Source of the DNA: Nitrospirae bacterium CG2_30_53_67 | GTDB lineage: Bacteria; CG2-30-53-67 | DNA length: 5,419 nucleotides | Assembly (NCBI GenBank): GCA_001873285.1 | Contig: MNYV01000024.1 | Coordinates: 1-5,419 of the forward strand | Direction of reading: 5' to 3' | Shown: piece by piece, positions 125 through 4,913 of the stretch | Position numbering within the stretch: position 1 is the first letter of the stretch | Layout of the letters: each line of letters opens with the position of its first letter | The notes under the pieces: model-generated | What the model was told of the DNA's origin: nothing | Database searches by the model: none | What the model saw: the letters and a program-made list of their open reading frames with translations, nothing else | Program-made: the position numbers and the translations under genes

Positions 125-159
125 GATGCATGCCTTTTTATTCTTTTATGACGTAAGAA

Positions 160-372
160 GTATCAAGGGTTCCAGGGTTCAAGGATTCAAGGGTTCAAGT
201 GGTTTTTTTTAATTTAGGTATCTTCTATCATCTCACCTACCCCCAGGGTTCTTGATCTGTTAACCCATCAGTTTCTTGCTAAGCTTTTCACTCGGACCCT
301 AGGCCCCTTGACCCCTCGAACCCTCAAGTTTTTGAAAAGCATTTCACTTGACCCCTAATGTTTTCATCCGCT
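160..372. repeat. Degenerate copy of the octamer-array inverted-repeat element (copy A)
   Basis: This fills most of the gap between the metallophosphoesterase and purB. The left arm (160-199) is five tandem 8-bp units: GTATCAAG, GGTTCCAG, GGTTCAAG, GATTCAAG, GGTTCAAG. The right side has a complementary-type array at 291-330 (CTCGGACC, CTAGGCCC, CTTGACCC, CTCGAACC, CTCAAGTT). After a 16-bp link comes a shorter array, CTTGACCC-CTAATGTT (347-362). The right end TTTTCATCCGCT (361-372) matches the terminal repeat of copies B and D with three changes. That end touches the stop codon of the metallophosphoesterase at 373-375. The left terminal repeat is eroded. The right side is closest to copy C. 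Confidence 0.75.
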
Positions 373-1098
373 CTAAATTCCGTATTCGAGGCGTTCAATT
401 AAAAAAGAGGGCAGATGGTGCGCCCTCATCTTATCCTGGGTGATCCGGAAATTATATTTTACCCGTACAAACGAAATTTTTTCTTCCTCAGTATCGTAGA
501 GGACATAGACGGCATCCGGATTCCTGTCCCTGGGCTGTCCGACACTTCCGACGTTGACAATATAACGAATCTTCTCCTCTATTGTCAACACGGATTCTTG
601 GATTTCTCCGAATTGATTCCCATCGCAAAAATAGGCTGCCGGCCGGTGCGTATGGCCGACCAGGCAAATCTTTCCTTCAAAGAAATCAAAGTGATATGCC
701 GCATCCGGCATGGAAGAGATGTATGACCACTCCTGAGGCCGGTCCGGAGATGCATGGACAAGAAAAAGATCCTTTTCACGTTCCGTCATCGGAAGGGAAA
801 GGAGCCTGTCACGGTTCTCCGAGGTCAGCGCCGACCGGGTCCAGAGAATGGCCTCTGCGGCCAGGGGATTAAACTGATCGATGTCGGTGAGGCCGACCGC
901 GGCATGGTCGTGATTCCCGGCCACGATCATGTCCGAGACCTCGAAGATCTTCTCCATGCATTCGTTGGGGTCGGGCCCGTATCCCACCGCATCCCCCAGG
1001 AAGAAGACACGGTCCGGTTTCTGTTTCCGGATCTCGGTTAGAACAGCGTTCAGCGCCTCAAGATTGCTGTGGACATCGGAGAAAATGGCGATACGCAC
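373..1098 (-). CDS. Calcineurin-like metallophosphoesterase, YfcE/MJ0936 type
   Basis: A 241-residue protein with the full metallophosphoesterase motif set: D8-x-H10 (FSDVHSN), G35-D36 (GDAVGYGP), G61-N62-H63-D64 (GNHDHA), H115 (VHAS) and G148-H-T-H151 (GHTHRP). These bind the two-metal centre of a compact cytoplasmic phosphodiesterase or phosphatase. The substrate cannot be read from the sequence. I start it at the GTG at 1098, giving VRIAIFSDVHSN, because the family begins directly with this strand and an AGGT ribosome site lies 8 nt upstream. The frame stays open to 1173 through an ATG at 1152 and a TTG at 1173, but that would add 18-25 polar residues with no ribosome site. It lies last in the rib-nusB gene string, 273 bp after nusB. 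There is no signal peptide or membrane segment. Family assignment is firm; function is unknown. Confidence 0.9.
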   Translation of the reverse strand: MRIAIFSDVHSNLEALNAVLTEIRKQKPDRVFFLGDAVGYGPDPNECMEKIFEVSDMIVAGNHDHAAVGLTDIDQFNPLAAEAILWTRSALTSENRDRLLSLPMTEREKDLFLVHASPDRPQEWSYISSMPDAAYHFDFFEGKICLVGHTHRPAAYFCDGNQFGEIQESVLTIEEKIRYIVNVGSVGQPRDRNPDAVYVLYDTEEEKISFVRVKYNFRITQDKMRAHHLPSFLIERLEYGI

Positions 1099-1104
1099 AA
1101 TGTT

Positions 1105-1110
1105 TACCTG
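1105..1110 (-). promoter_or_regulatory. Ribosome binding site deciding the GTG start
   Basis: On the minus strand CAGGT is followed by an 8-nt AT-rich spacer and the GTG at 1098. Neither upstream alternative (ATG 1152, TTG 1173) has a purine-rich site at proper distance. This supports the shorter metallophosphoesterase, but the site is only a 4-base match. Confidence 0.45.
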
Positions 1111-1199
1111 AAAATGTTTTGCCGCCTTATCTCTTTTGGATGACGATCCCATTGATTGACGACTGAAGAACAACGGTCCTATATGCGCTGCCGGTTATC

Positions 1200-1235
1200 C
1201 CCCTCACCCTTACCCTCTCCCACAAGGGGCGAGGG
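1200..1235. repeat. CCCTCA-type palindromic repeat, copy 1
   Basis: A GC-rich dispersed repeat starting CCCCTCACCCTTACC and ending AAGGGGCGAGGG. CCCTC (1213-1217) pairs with GAGGG (1231-1235), and CCC (1219-1221) pairs with the GGGG run. Its reverse complement is found at 4864-4900 with about 30 of 36 positions alike. It resembles CCCTCACCC...GAGGG intergenic repeats common in several proteobacterial genomes. It lies in the nusB-metallophosphoesterase gap. Confidence 0.7.
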
Positions 1236-1255
1236 AACTGTTAGTGGGCTTTCCC

Positions 1256-1324
1256 TCCCTTGATGGAAGGGGACTCCGAGTAGGGTGTTTTTAACCGCTT
1301 ACGAGTAGGCCCCTTTGAGGGGCC
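1256..1324. other. Two further hairpins in the nusB-metallophosphoesterase gap
   Basis: TCCCTT (1256-1261) can pair with AAGGGG (1267-1272) across a 5-base loop. GGCCCC (1308-1313) pairs perfectly with GGGGCC (1319-1324) across TTTGA. Neither has a T-run on the transcribed strand, so they do not look like intrinsic terminators. No coding potential is seen in 1099-1371, and this gap appears to be stacked palindromic repeat debris. Confidence 0.45.
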
Positions 1325-1325
1325 A

Positions 1326-1356
1326 GAAAACGTCAAGCCTCCGGCTTTGCCGGAGG
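1326..1356 (-). terminator. Possible intrinsic terminator after nusB
   Basis: A perfect 8-bp GC-rich stem, CCTCCGGC / GCCGGAGG (1338-1356), has a 3-base loop and sits 15 bp past the nusB stop. In the direction of transcription it is followed by CTTGACGTTTTC. The T-run starts 6 bases after the stem and is only four long, so termination may be partial. The hairpin could also be another palindromic repeat. Confidence 0.4.
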
Positions 1357-1371
1357 TTACCGACTGTAGAT

Positions 1372-1806
1372 TTAAATGAGTGAATATTTTTCCATGTACC
1401 GTTCCTTTTCTTTCAGCACCTTGTCCAGAATCCCGTTGATAAAGGAGCCTGCGTCATCCCCGCTGTACTGCCTGGCCAGCTCAATGGCCTCATCAATCGT
1501 GACCTTTTCCGGAATGTCTTCCCGGAAACAGATCTCATAGATTGCGAGACGTAGGATGTTCTTGTCGACCATCGAAATGCGGGAAAGTTTCCAATGGAGC
1601 GAAAGCTCTGAGATCAGCAGGTCGATCTTTTCGATCTGTTCCACGGTGCCGATGAAGATGGACTCGGCAAAGGATCGAATATCCTTGTCCAGGCTTTTCT
1701 GTCCCTTCCAGAACTCTTTAAGCAGTTCCATGGGAGGCTCCTTGCGGATTTCATATTGATAAAGGAGCTGAAGGGTCAGCGCCCTGCTCTTTCGTCTCTT
1801 GCCCAT
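1372..1806 (-). CDS. nusB: Transcription antitermination protein NusB
   Basis: A 144-residue all-helical protein of normal NusB length. The basic N-terminus (MGKRRKSRALTLQLLYQYE) is the boxA RNA-binding helix region. The central ID-LI...W-L-RIS-VDKNILRLAIYE block and the C-terminal IPEKVTIDEAIELARQYS...FINGILDKVL block are the conserved NusB core. NusB with ribosomal protein S10 (NusE) binds boxA and lets RNA polymerase read through rRNA leader terminators. The start is the ATG at 1806. GGAAGG lies just 3 nt upstream, an unusually short spacing, and no in-frame alternative has a better site. It follows ribH after 274 bp, a frequent pairing but normally a much shorter gap; here a repeat element occupies it. 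A candidate terminator follows. Confidence 0.97.
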   Translation of the reverse strand: MGKRRKSRALTLQLLYQYEIRKEPPMELLKEFWKGQKSLDKDIRSFAESIFIGTVEQIEKIDLLISELSLHWKLSRISMVDKNILRLAIYEICFREDIPEKVTIDEAIELARQYSGDDAGSFINGILDKVLKEKERYMEKYSLI

Positions 1807-1844
1807 AATCCTTCCACTCGGTTGGAGATACCTGTCTATTCTTT

Positions 1845-2071
1845 TGGTTCTTCGCCCATTTAGTGGGTAAAAAGGGGTCGAGGGTTCAAGGGGTCAAGGA
1901 TTCAAGTGAAATATAGATTCAAGGAGATGCCGGGATCTAACGACAAAAATAGAGAAAAGCGGGACACGTGAAGCGTAACCCTATGACCCTTGACCCCTGA
2001 TGTTTTTAGCACTTCACTCGACCCCTTGAATCCTTGGCCCCTTGACCCCTGATGTTTTCACCTACTCTTTT
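1845..2071. repeat. Octamer-array inverted-repeat element, full copy B
   Basis: This lies between ribH and nusB. Terminal inverted repeats are AGTGGGTAAAAA (1862-1873) and TTTTCACCTACT (2055-2066). The left array (1875-1906) is GGGTCGAG, GGTTCAAG, GGGTCAAG, GATTCAAG, then TGAA. The right array (2017-2048) is preceded by TTCA and reads CTCGACCC, CTTGAATC, CTTGGCCC, CTTGACCC, then CTGATGTT. A partial extra array lies at 1981-2004. Left and right arrays are 24/32 complementary (26/32 with G-U pairs in RNA). Identity with copy D continues outside the left terminal repeat through TGGTTCTTC-CCCA (from 1845), so the true unit is larger than the terminal repeats. No ORF is seen in the spacer. The right end lies 9-14 bp from the ribH stop. 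Confidence 0.85.
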
Positions 2072-2080
2072 TAACGGAGT

Positions 2081-2551
2081 CTACTTCCCCAACTGGCGGA
2101 AGAGATTGACCATCTCGATGGCGCCGAGCGCCGCCTCGGCCCCCTTGTTTCCGGCCTTGGCGCCGGCCCGCTCGATGGCCTGCTCGATGGTATCCGTGGT
2201 CAGCACCCCGTACATGACGGGGATGGCGGACTGCATGGCGAGAGAAGCGATCCCCTTGGTGACCTCGGCGCTGATATAATCGAAATGCGGCGTCGCCCCC
2301 CGGATAACCGCACCGAGGCAGATCACGCCGTCGTACCCTCCCTTTGCAGTCAGCATCCTGGCCGCGAAAGGAATCTCAAAAGCGCCCGGCACCTTGACGA
2401 TCGCAACGTCCTTGTCCAAGGCGCCGTGCCGCTTCAGCGCGTCCATGGCCCCTTCCAGTAGTCGGGACGTGATGAAGTCATTGAAACGGCTCACCACGAT
2501 CGCGAATTTAAGACCCTTGGCTTGCAATTCACCTTCAATCATCTTCGGCAT
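2081..2551 (-). CDS. ribH: 6,7-dimethyl-8-ribityllumazine synthase
   Basis: A 156-residue protein, the usual length for the family. It condenses 5-amino-6-ribitylamino-uracil with 3,4-dihydroxy-2-butanone 4-phosphate to make lumazine, the next-to-last step of riboflavin synthesis, and usually assembles into pentamers or 60-mer capsids. Visible landmarks are R22-F23-N24 (Phe stacks on the pyrimidine), VPGAFEIP (54-61), [14 protein letters not shown] with R84-G85-A86-T87 at the phosphate pocket and catalytic H89, [16 protein letters not shown] with R128, and NKGAEAA near the C-terminus. All key residues are present. The start is the ATG at 2551, with a strong AAGGAGG (2556-2562) 4 nt upstream. 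It lies between ribBA and nusB with repeat elements on both sides. Confidence 0.98.
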
Positions 2552-2575
2552 GTCTCCTCCTTAAGTTATTAAAAT

Positions 2576-2679
2576 GCTTTTCACTTGGACCCCAGGCCCC
2601 TTGACCCCTTGGACCCTTGGGTTTCTAAAGAGCATTTCACTTGACCCCTGGAATCCTTGACCCCTTGGACCCTGTTTTT
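2576..2679. repeat. One-armed octamer-array element (copy C), two arrays in tandem
   Basis: This fills the ribBA-ribH gap. The first array (2584-2623) is CTTGGACC, CCAGGCCC, CTTGACCC, CTTGGACC, CTTGGGTT, preceded by TTTTCA. A 16-bp link ending GCATTTCA follows. The second array (2640-2671) is CTTGACCC, CTGGAATC, CTTGACCC, CTTGGACC, then CTGTTTTT. It closely matches the right half of copy A, including the link GCATTTCACTTGACCCC. There is no complementary left array and no terminal repeat, so it is a truncated or solo form. Its last bases overlap the ribBA stop codon (2678-2680). Confidence 0.8.
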
Positions 2680-3889
2680 ATATATGATTCAGGAAATGTC
2701 CCATTTTTTCCTTTTTGGTCTTGAGATACCTCAGGTTGCAGCTCCGGGTGGCCGTCTCTATGGGAACCCGTTCGACCACCTCCAGGCCGTATCCCTGAAG
2801 CCCGATAATCTTCCTGGGATTGTTGGTCAAGAGCCTGATCTTTCGCACCCCAAGCTCCACAAGGATCTGGGCGCCGATCCCGTAGTCCCTGAGATCGGGT
2901 TTGAACCCGAGCTTCTCATTGGCCTCCACGGTATCCAGCCCCTGATCCTGCAGGGCATAGGCCTTGATCTTGTTGGCAAGGCCGATCCCCCTCCCCTCCT
3001 GCCTCATATAGAGGATGACCCCCTTCCCTTGTTTTGCGATGAGGCCCATGGCGGTTTGAAGCTGATCCCCGCAGTCACACCGTTTGGAGCCGAAGACGTC
3101 GCCGGTCAGGCACTCGGAATGGACACGTACCAGGATTTCTTCGTCCGGATGAATCTCTCCCTTGACCAGGGCCAGATGTTCCTTATGGTCGATGTCGTTT
3201 TCATAGACGATCACCTTGAACTCACCGCCGAACAACGAGGGGATGACGGCCTCGGCCGAGCGGCGGACCAGGGATTCGTTTTGCAGGCGATAGGCAATCA
3301 GGTCCCGGATGGTCACGACTTTCAGACCGTGCATCTTTGCAAACTTGACAAGTTCAGGAAGGCGGGCCATGGTGCCGTCTTCGTTCATGATCTCGCATAT
3401 CACCCCGGCCGGTGTAAGACCGGCAAGCCGAGCCAGGTCCACGGATCCCTCGGTCTGACCGGCCCTCTGCAGAACCCCCCCCTCCCTGGCCCTGAGAGGG
3501 AAGATGTGTCCCGGCCGCACCAAATCATTAGCCTTGGCATCCGGATGGACGGCGGTAAGGATCGTGGTCGCCCGGTCGGCCGCAGAGATCCCCGTGGTTA
3601 CGCCCCTTCTCGCCTCGATGGAAACCGTAAAGGCCGTTCCAAAGGCCGACTCATTCTCCCTGGTCATCAAAGGAAGGTCCAGGCTCTTGACCTTCTCCGG
3701 AGTCAGGGAAAGGCAGATCAGCCCGCGGCCGTACTTGGCCATGAAGTTGACGGCCTCCGGGGTCACCTTCTCCGCGGCCATGGTCAGGTCCCCTTCGTTC
3801 TCCCGGTCTTCATCGTCAACCAGGATGACGATTTTCCCCTGACGGATATCCTCAATGGCCTCTTCGATGGTGGATATTTCTTTTTTCAT
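2678..3889 (-). CDS. ribBA: Bifunctional DHBP synthase / GTP cyclohydrolase II
   Basis: A 403-residue fusion of normal length that makes both riboflavin precursors. The RibB domain (about 1-202) turns ribulose 5-phosphate into 3,4-dihydroxy-2-butanone 4-phosphate. It shows [11 protein letters not shown] (25-35, with metal ligand E30), [10 protein letters not shown], the [15 protein letters not shown] block (96-110), [10 protein letters not shown] (125-134) and E166. The usual GHTEA motif reads GQTEG (144-148), so the expected metal ligand His is Q145. The RibA domain (about 206-403) opens GTP. It has the zinc cysteines C260, C271 and C273 (HSECLTGD...RCDCGDQL), RQEGRGIGL (296-304), DTVEAN (319-324) and LTNNPRK. 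Both domains look complete. The ATG at 3889 has GAGG 6 nt upstream. It lies between ribE and ribH, with repeat elements in both gaps. RibA function is very likely; RibB activity is open because of Q145. Confidence 0.97.
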
Positions 3890-3916
3890 ATCTAACCTCG
3901 TATTGTTTATGAATTA

Positions 3917-4149
3917 TGGTTCTTCTCCCACATAGTGGGTAAAAAGGGTTTGAGGACTGAAGAGCCATAGGGTCATAGGAGTCAAGGGGTCAAGGGTTCA
4001 AGTGGAATACTTAAATGCAAGCAAAATCTACAGAGCAAATCACTAAAACCCTTGAATCCTAAGATCCTCGGCCCCTTATGTTTTGATCACTTCACTTGAA
4101 CCCTGGAATCCTTGGCCCCTTGACCCCTGATGTTTTCACCCACTCTTTT
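3917..4149. repeat. Octamer-array inverted-repeat element, full copy D
   Basis: This lies between ribE and ribBA. Terminal inverted repeats AGTGGGTAAAAA (3934-3945) and TTTTCACCCACT (4133-4144) match 11 of 12. The left array has seven units in 8-bp register (3947-4002), from GGTTTGAG through GAGTCAAG, GGGTCAAG, GGTTCAAG, then TGGAA. An inner partial array sits at 4051-4082. The right array (4095-4126) is CTTGAACC, CTGGAATC, CTTGGCCC, CTTGACCC, followed by CTGATGTT. A 5-bp hairpin, CCCAC-ATA-GTGGG (3927-3939), overlaps the left end. Copy B shares both ends, including the flank TGGTTCTTC-CCCA. The spacer is not clearly conserved and has no ORF. The right end lies about 20 bp from the ribE stop. 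Confidence 0.85.
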
Positions 4150-4167
4150 GGAATTGCTTCGCTCCCA

Positions 4168-4863: not shown

Positions 4864-4900
4864 CCCTTCTCCCCTTGAGGGAGAAGGCGAGGATGAGGGG
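4864..4900. repeat. CCCTCA-type palindromic repeat, copy 2
   Basis: A perfect 9-bp stem, CCTTCTCCC (4865-4873) / GGGAGAAGG (4879-4887), has a CTTGA loop and is followed by CGAGGATGAGGGG. Its reverse complement aligns with 1200-1235. It occupies the ribD-ribE gap, 13 bp after the ribD stop. There is no T-run on the transcribed strand, so a terminator is unlikely and ribE is probably still co-transcribed with ribD. Confidence 0.75.
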
Positions 4901-4913
4901 GATTCATTCTATC

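What the first reader, a model, noticed from the sequence alone, without database searches (positions are those of the whole stretch)
160..4134. Strict 8-bp register in all arrays: tandem CTTGRMCC / GGKYCAAG units
All four elements break into 8-mers with no slippage inside an array: 160-199, 291-330, 1875-1906, 2017-2048, 2584-2623, 2640-2671, 3947-4002, 4095-4126. CTTG at the unit start and CC or TC at the end are kept while the middle varies. Right-hand arrays are bounded by TTCA on the inner side, and most end with CT(G/A)ATGTT or a T-rich last unit on the outer side. Left arrays carry the mirror boundary TG(G/A)A. Fixed unit length with drifting sequence suggests either repeated unit expansion or selection on spacing, such as protein binding or stem periodicity.
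Basis: seen in the sequence. Interest (0 to 1): 0.68.

Follow-up and report, generated by a model that had tools for sequence, protein, structure and literature searches.

The report
Tandem-repeat arms of palindromic mobile elements
The 8-letter repeat arrays are the two mirror-image arms of small mobile DNA elements that jumped into the gaps between riboflavin genes; they appear to be gene-less relatives of a widespread, poorly understood element that carries the '23S rRNA intervening-sequence' (four-helix-bundle) gene between such arrays.

Summary
The 8-bp arrays are real (19 three-unit matches in the window, 0 in 200 shuffles). They are inverted arms of four 100-250-bp palindromic elements in intergenic gaps of a riboflavin operon. 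The nearest genome (ribBA 91% identical) has the same genes but not these elements. The family is dispersed in relatives and, patchily, in deltaproteobacterial genomes. Window-type copies end in ~28-bp inverted repeats starting GG and are flanked by 8-bp target duplications (signal at length 8 only, z 4.6; one perfect case), as ISL3 transposons are. In other genomes the same arrays bracket an intact four-helix-bundle gene of the 23S-rRNA intervening-sequence protein (IVP, S23; PF05635) family. More generally, of 96 PF05635 genes from 34 genomes, 62 have array-like or inverted flanks against 13 of 690 control genes (period usually 7). Cyanobacterial plasmids show filled, ORF-less and empty versions of one site, and repeat numbers differing between strains. 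So the arrays are arms of ORF-less, MITE-like relatives of an IVP element class of which the rRNA intervening sequences are probably one outpost. I found no description of this link in the papers held. Shown: dispersal, empty sites, target duplications, the IVP link. Inferred: the transposase, and what IVP does.

The parts
155..380 (.). Element E1, between the purB start and the phosphoesterase gene: left array 160-199, right array 291-322, extra unit about 345-356, TIR-B-like remnant about 353-380
   Evidence: fold z -2.36; the G004 gap at the same place lacks it and holds a different array palindrome
160..199 (-). E1 left array, 5 units GRKYCMAG
291..322 (+). E1 right array, 4 units
1846..2076 (.). 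Element E2, between nusB and ribH
   Evidence: TIR-A with 1 mismatch; fold z -5.26; absent from G004 (9-bp gap) and L001 (25-bp gap)
1846..1874 (+). E2 terminal inverted repeat A (GGTTCTTCGCCCATTTAGTGGGTAAAAAG)
1875..1906 (-). E2 left array, 4 units
2017..2048 (+). E2 right array, 4 units; partial extra copy at 1985-1999
2049..2074 (-). E2 terminal inverted repeat B, diverged outer end, abutting the ribH stop codon
   Evidence: 9 mismatches
2579..2679 (.). Element E3, between ribH and ribBA: two right-type arms 2584-2623 and 2640-2671, no terminal repeats; probably a rearranged or decayed copy
   Evidence: absent from G004; fold z only -1.05
3918..4154 (.). Element E4, between ribBA and ribE
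   Evidence: TIR-A 2 mismatches, TIR-B 4 mismatches; fold z -4.22
3918..3946 (+). E4 terminal inverted repeat A
3971..4002 (-). E4 left array (3979-4002 clean)
4003..4050 (.). E4 inner segment, resembling the joined start and end of an IVP reading frame as seen in ORF-deleted copies of G051
   Evidence: window E4 p 0.001 to 0.19 over three comparisons; three G004 copies p 0.0053 or lower
4051..4074 (+). E4 inner right array (degenerate)
4095..4126 (+). E4 right array, 4 units
4127..4154 (-). E4 terminal inverted repeat B (reverse complement of ...CCAAAAGAGTGGGTGAAAACATCAG)

Best explanation
The arrays are the inverted arms of ORF-less (non-autonomous, MITE-like) palindromic mobile elements that inserted into intergenic gaps of a riboflavin operon. 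They belong with elements in which the same arrays bracket a gene for a four-helix-bundle protein of the 23S rRNA intervening-sequence protein (IVP/S23, PF05635) type. The window-type copies also carry ~28-bp terminal inverted repeats and the family inserts with 8-bp target duplication, most likely by an ISL3-type DDE transposase acting in trans (inferred). Unit number and sequence then drift by slipped-strand expansion and point mutation (inferred), while the arms stay complementary enough to form a long hairpin. In transcripts that hairpin may be cut by RNase III as 23S intervening sequences are, making insertion between co-transcribed genes tolerable (inferred).
For: Dispersed copies: 44 hits in G001 (up to 2 mismatches) and 152 in G004 (up to 1), control 0. 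Order -/+ in 61 of 61 opposite-strand neighbours. Empty sites: G004 and L001 have the same operon with 0-55-bp gaps at E2 and E3. TIRs and TSD: 11 complete copies, mean 5.0/8 matching flank bases against 2.9 expected, only length 8 stands out (z 4.6), L177 a perfect TTTATTTA. ISL3 signature: ISL3 transposon Tn7546 has IR GGGTCTTCGGA and an 8-bp direct repeat (PMC9782665); a broken ISL3 transposase in G004 has a nearby end GGTCTTCTCCCAAACGAGTGGGTAGGAA like TIR-A. IVP link: the same arrays flank intact PF05635 ORFs (E about 1e-39) in G051 and G059, with partly deleted ORFs in further G051 copies. General association: 62/96 PF05635 genes against 13/690 controls, Fisher p 8e-54. Cyanobacterial plasmids show filled, ORF-less and empty states of one site, unit-number changes, and recurrence of the cassette next to different genes.
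Against: Window E1 and E3 lack one or both recognisable TIRs, and the window copies' own 8-bp duplications are not recognisable (2/8 and 2/8). The inner similarity of window E4 to IVP ORF ends is modest (p 0.001 to 0.19). No IVP gene with GGKTCAAG arrays was found in G001-G007, so the link in this phylum rests on other genomes. About a third of PF05635 genes show no array by the stricter test, and some genomes' genes (all three of G085) by neither test. The E4 gap in G004 is not clean: it retains a GGTTCTTC-like start and other sequence.
Confidence: 0.8

Rival explanations
1. Ordinary ISL3-derived MITE whose arms happen to hold an 8-bp minisatellite; any likeness to IVP elements is convergence or chance capture.
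For: TIRs, 8-bp TSD and small size fit a MITE. A minisatellite inside a MITE is known in Porphyromonas gingivalis (PMC4596501, listed, not read).
Against: The same unit, orientation and TGAA|ATG boundary flank intact IVP ORFs in other genomes, and array flanks are general to PF05635 genes.
Confidence: 0.12
2. REP/BIME-like extragenic palindromes or transcription-terminator/mRNA-stability hairpins kept for function.
For: Intergenic, palindromic, strong predicted hairpins in two of four, many copies.
Against: Absent at orthologous gaps in the nearest genome; TSDs in the family; E2-E4 lie inside an operon, where terminators would be unexpected.
Confidence: 0.05
3. Selected tandem binding sites for a protein that needs 8-bp spacing.
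For: Fixed unit length with drifting sequence; unit count peaks at 4.
Against: Sister elements use 6-, 7-, 8- and 9-bp units of unrelated sequence; 4-unit arms look inherited. Binding was not testable here.
Confidence: 0.08
4. CRISPR-like array or sequencing/assembly artefact.
For: Several G004 contigs end inside arrays.
Against: Units are contiguous without spacers; arrays occur in many independent assemblies and, in sister form, in complete plasmids.
Confidence: 0.01

Closest known systems
23S rRNA intervening sequences (IVS) with S23p/IVP ORF (e.g. Coxiella burnetii; PMC4990558)
   Same: S23p/IVP-family ORF bordered by complementary sequence; direct heptamers (GACAGAT) just upstream of the ORF whose number differs between strains; ORF prone to deletion
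   Different: Those sit in rRNA helices; window copies are intergenic, ORF-less, with 8-bp units and ISL3-like ends
ISL3-family insertion sequences and transposons (e.g. Tn7546, PMC9782665)
   Same: GG(G/T)TCTTC-type ends, 8-bp target duplication
   Different: No transposase in the element; palindromic array arms
Heptameric repeats of Xanthomonas (GGGAATC) and Nostoc (PMC4692102); cyanobacterial STRR
   Same: Short-unit arrays, intergenic; 70 and 75 cases of paired, convergent repeat sites in two Xanthomonas genomes
   Different: 7-bp units; [quoted passage not shown] a link to IVP was not tested for Xanthomonas here
MITE with minisatellite in Porphyromonas gingivalis (PMC4596501)
   Same: Tandem array inside a miniature inverted-repeat element
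   Different: Known here only from title and abstract
DGR accessory protein Avd
   Same: Four-helix-bundle relative of IVP (weak Pfam/NCBIfam hits; PMC10053308)
   Different: No reverse transcriptase or template/variable repeat looked for in these elements

Membership tests
MITE (non-autonomous DNA transposon) | Terminal inverted repeats | tested here: met
   TIR-A/TIR-B in window E2, E4 and many G004 copies; E1 and E3 incomplete
MITE (non-autonomous DNA transposon) | Target site duplication of fixed length | tested here: met
   8 bp, z 4.6, carried by G004 copies; not recognisable for the two window copies tested
MITE (non-autonomous DNA transposon) | Insertion polymorphism / empty sites | tested here: met
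   E2 and E3 empty in G004 and L001
ISL3 family (as mobiliser) | Transposase with matching ends in the genome | tested here: inconclusive
   Broken ISL3 transposase in G004:C17 with a TIR-A-like end; no intact element with both ends identified
IVP/S23 (IVS-type) element | PF05635 four-helix-bundle ORF | tested here: not met
   Absent in the window elements; present between the same arrays in G051, G059. Hence described as an ORF-less derivative or relative, not filed as an IVP element
IVP/S23 (IVS-type) element | Bordering inverted arrays / stem | tested here: met
23S rRNA IVS | Located in rRNA | tested here: not met
   All four lie between protein genes; no Rfam hit
REP/BIME | Short palindromes moved by a RAYT transposase | not tested
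   RAYT was not searched
CRISPR | Repeats separated by unique spacers | tested here: not met
   Units are head-to-tail without spacers

The most novel reading that the evidence does not exclude
IVP/S23 four-helix-bundle genes are the cargo of a general, phylum-spanning class of small mobile elements defined by inverted arrays of 6-9-bp tandem repeats with fast-changing unit sequence. The 23S rRNA intervening sequences, many unexplained intergenic short tandem arrays (cyanobacterial heptamers, perhaps the Xanthomonas ones) and the window's 8-bp palindromes are its rRNA-resident, ORF-less and TIR-bearing forms.
Probability: 0.6. Interest if true: 0.85.

Novelty: new variant of a known kind. Interest (0 to 1): 0.76.

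Why it matters
The function and origin of 23S rRNA intervening sequences and of the abundant PF05635 proteins have long been open, as has the origin of short tandem arrays scattered through bacterial genomes. This ties them together and makes the question testable: the element has definable ends, empty sites, ORF-less derivatives and strain-variable repeat numbers. It may also explain misleading gene-neighbourhood signals, such as four-helix-bundle genes sitting between cas genes.

Tried and rejected
Rfam scan of the window: nothing. Strict three-unit regex in 80 rib loci: arrays only in the window. The whole genome of the window is not held. Similarity of flank arrays against IVP identity: only pairs above about 60% identity share units, so arrays seem to turn over faster than the protein; the sample of close pairs is small (2 pairs above 70%). 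My first comparison of the MITE inner segment with ORF starts or ORF ends taken separately gave weak statistics; comparison with joined start+end forms was better, and I note that this was the second attempt. Considered CRISPR, REP/BIME, terminators and a pure minisatellite-in-MITE (see rivals). The first control set (66 genes from the same loci) gave 76/96; I rely on the larger, stricter set (62/96 against 13/690).
Full report
Setting. The window carries, on the minus strand, a riboflavin operon: ribD (C-terminal part, PF01872), ribE (lumazine-binding), ribBA (DHBP synthase + GTP cyclohydrolase II), ribH, then nusB and a calcineurin-like phosphoesterase. Alignment to G004 places the start of a gene that I read as purB (adenylosuccinate lyase, my reading of the G004 protein, not tested by Pfam) at about 1-124. 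No whole genome is held for the window. The closest genomes are G004 (ribBA 91% identical) and G001/L001 (83%); only 7 genomes are held for G001's phylum.

The observation. The 8-bp arrays are real and far beyond chance: 19 three-unit matches (up to 3 mismatches) against none in 200 shuffles. Exceptions: the 3947-4002 array is out of register in its outer half, and several listed arrays have degenerate end units. Among all fetched loci, neighbouring arrays on opposite strands are ordered GRKYCAAG first, CTTGRMYC second, 61 times and never the other way; 9 neighbours are on the same strand. The modal unit number is 4 (95 of 175 arrays), with extremes of 11 and 12.

The arrays are arms of elements. 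Outside the arrays, window E2 and E4 and many G004 copies have conserved ends: A, GGTTCTTCTCCCATTTAGTGGGTAAAAAG, and B, GGATCATCTCCAAAAGAGTGGGTGAAAACATCAG. Eleven complete copies show flank similarity at length 8 only (mean 5.0 of 8 against 2.9, z 4.6), with a perfect pair in L177 and 7/8 in L113 and L139. The window copies themselves score 2/8, so they are older or damaged. The ends and the 8-bp duplication are those of ISL3-type transposons; for comparison Tn7546 has GGGTCTTCGGA and an 8-bp repeat (PMC9782665). G004 holds a broken ISL3 transposase with a TIR-A-like end beside it. That an ISL3 transposase moves the elements is inferred.

Empty sites. L001 has gaps of 12, 55 and 25 bp where the window has 278, 126 and 274. 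G004, at 81-87% nucleotide identity over the rib genes, has virtually no gap at E2 and E3. At E1, G004 carries a different palindromic array made of ATCAAAAA-type units; at E4 it retains a GGTTCTTC-like start followed by other sequence.

Distribution. The arrays occur in 4 of 7 genomes of the phylum (152 hits in G004), in 1 of 33 further relatives, and in 5 of 34 genomes reached through other ribBA loci, four of them deltaproteobacterial records (G047, G051, G059, G048) and one Nitrospirota record (G045, one hit), always with control 0. A patchy distribution of this kind fits mobile DNA.

The IVP link. In G051 and G059 the same arrays in the same orientation flank an intact ORF that begins with ATG a few bases after the left array and ends inside the right one. 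The protein is PF05635/TIGR02436, the 23S rRNA intervening-sequence protein or four-helix-bundle family, E about 1e-39. Further G051 copies have partial ORFs (L220) or short remnants (L224, L228). The inner segment of G004 copies resembles such joined remnants (p 0.0053 or lower by shuffling); for window E4 the support is weaker (p 0.001, 0.018 and 0.19 against three references). This comparison followed a weaker first attempt.

A general rule. Looking at PF05635 genes at large, most are bracketed by short tandem arrays, usually inverted, of unrelated unit sequence. Against 690 control genes, 62 of 96 PF05635 genes pass the 99% threshold for inverted or tandem flanks, while 13 controls do (Fisher p 8e-54). 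With a smaller control set from the same loci the count is 76 of 96, in 30 of 34 genomes, and the period is mostly 7. Not all members follow it: the G085, G064, G065 and G083 genes did not pass even that looser test.

Sister elements in complete plasmids. Most of 13 cyanobacterial and other plasmid-borne four-helix-bundle genes have heptamer flanks, and cassettes have empty sites: Trichormus variabilis plasmid C against Nostoc linckia and Aulosira laxa (flanks about 98% identical), with a 5-bp repeat GTAAT at the junctions; Picosynechococcus PCC 7003 against 7002, between cas10 and cmr3; Calothrix against Nostoc carneum. At one Nostoc site the cassette (L360), an ORF-less array palindrome (L370) and a site without arrays (L371) are all seen. 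Unit number differs between orthologous copies: 5 against 6 CTGTTCC units, and a two-heptamer difference between Trichormus and Scytonema. The whole cassette recurs at other loci with 78-83% identity, and ORF-less copies are common.

Known biology. The Coxiella 23S IVS has an S23p ORF preceded by GACAGAT heptamers whose number differs between strains, is bordered by complementary sequence, and is excised by RNase III (PMC4990558). Heptamer arrays in Xanthomonas and Nostoc, in Xanthomonas many of them in inverted pairs, were reported without an association to mobile elements (PMC4692102). I found no paper in the held library that makes the general link; most subscription literature was not searchable, so novelty is provisional.

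Mechanism. Shown: dispersal, empty sites, 8-bp target duplication for the TIR-bearing family, hairpin potential (strong in E2 and E4, weak in E1 and E3), unit-number change in sister elements, association with IVP genes. Inferred: mobilisation in trans by an ISL3-type transposase; slippage as the source of unit change; RNase III processing of transcripts; any role of IVP. The transposition route of IVP cassettes without TIRs is unknown.

Noticed in passing
L200:4733-4925 (G004, same gap as window E1): A different array palindrome (ATCAAAAAT / TTTTTGATC) occupies the gap; it matches the array type flanking the IVP gene of L273.
   Followed up: partly
L001:6462-6516: The ribBA-ribH gap holds TTCAGCCGTCAGCATTCAGTC, resembling CAGCNNT arrays that flank another IVP gene (L295).
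   Followed up: no
window 1952-1981: The GGGTTACGCTTCACGTGTCCCGCTTTTCTC module inside E2 recurs in about 20 fetched loci (some overlapping), inside or beside array elements of the same phylum.
   Followed up: partly
window 1197-1235 and 4865-4903: A second inverted repeat family (ATCCCCCTCACCC...GAGGG), 82% complementary, unrelated to the arrays; similar text also in G004 gaps.
   Followed up: no
L357, L363, L366: Four-helix-bundle genes sit between cas6 and cas4 or cas10 and cmr3 in cyanobacterial plasmids; array-like flanks and the empty site in PCC 7002 suggest insertion rather than CRISPR function.
   Followed up: partly
L382, L383, L384, L385: ORF-less cyanobacterial palindromes with AGAAGTC/CAGAATT arms share a conserved multi-hairpin loop not obviously derived from IVP; possibly a structured RNA (one copy folds at -79.8 kcal/mol).
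   Followed up: no
L115, L119, L127, L135 (G004): Contigs end inside pure GGTTCAAG arrays, so draft genomes probably undercount the longest arrays.
   Followed up: no
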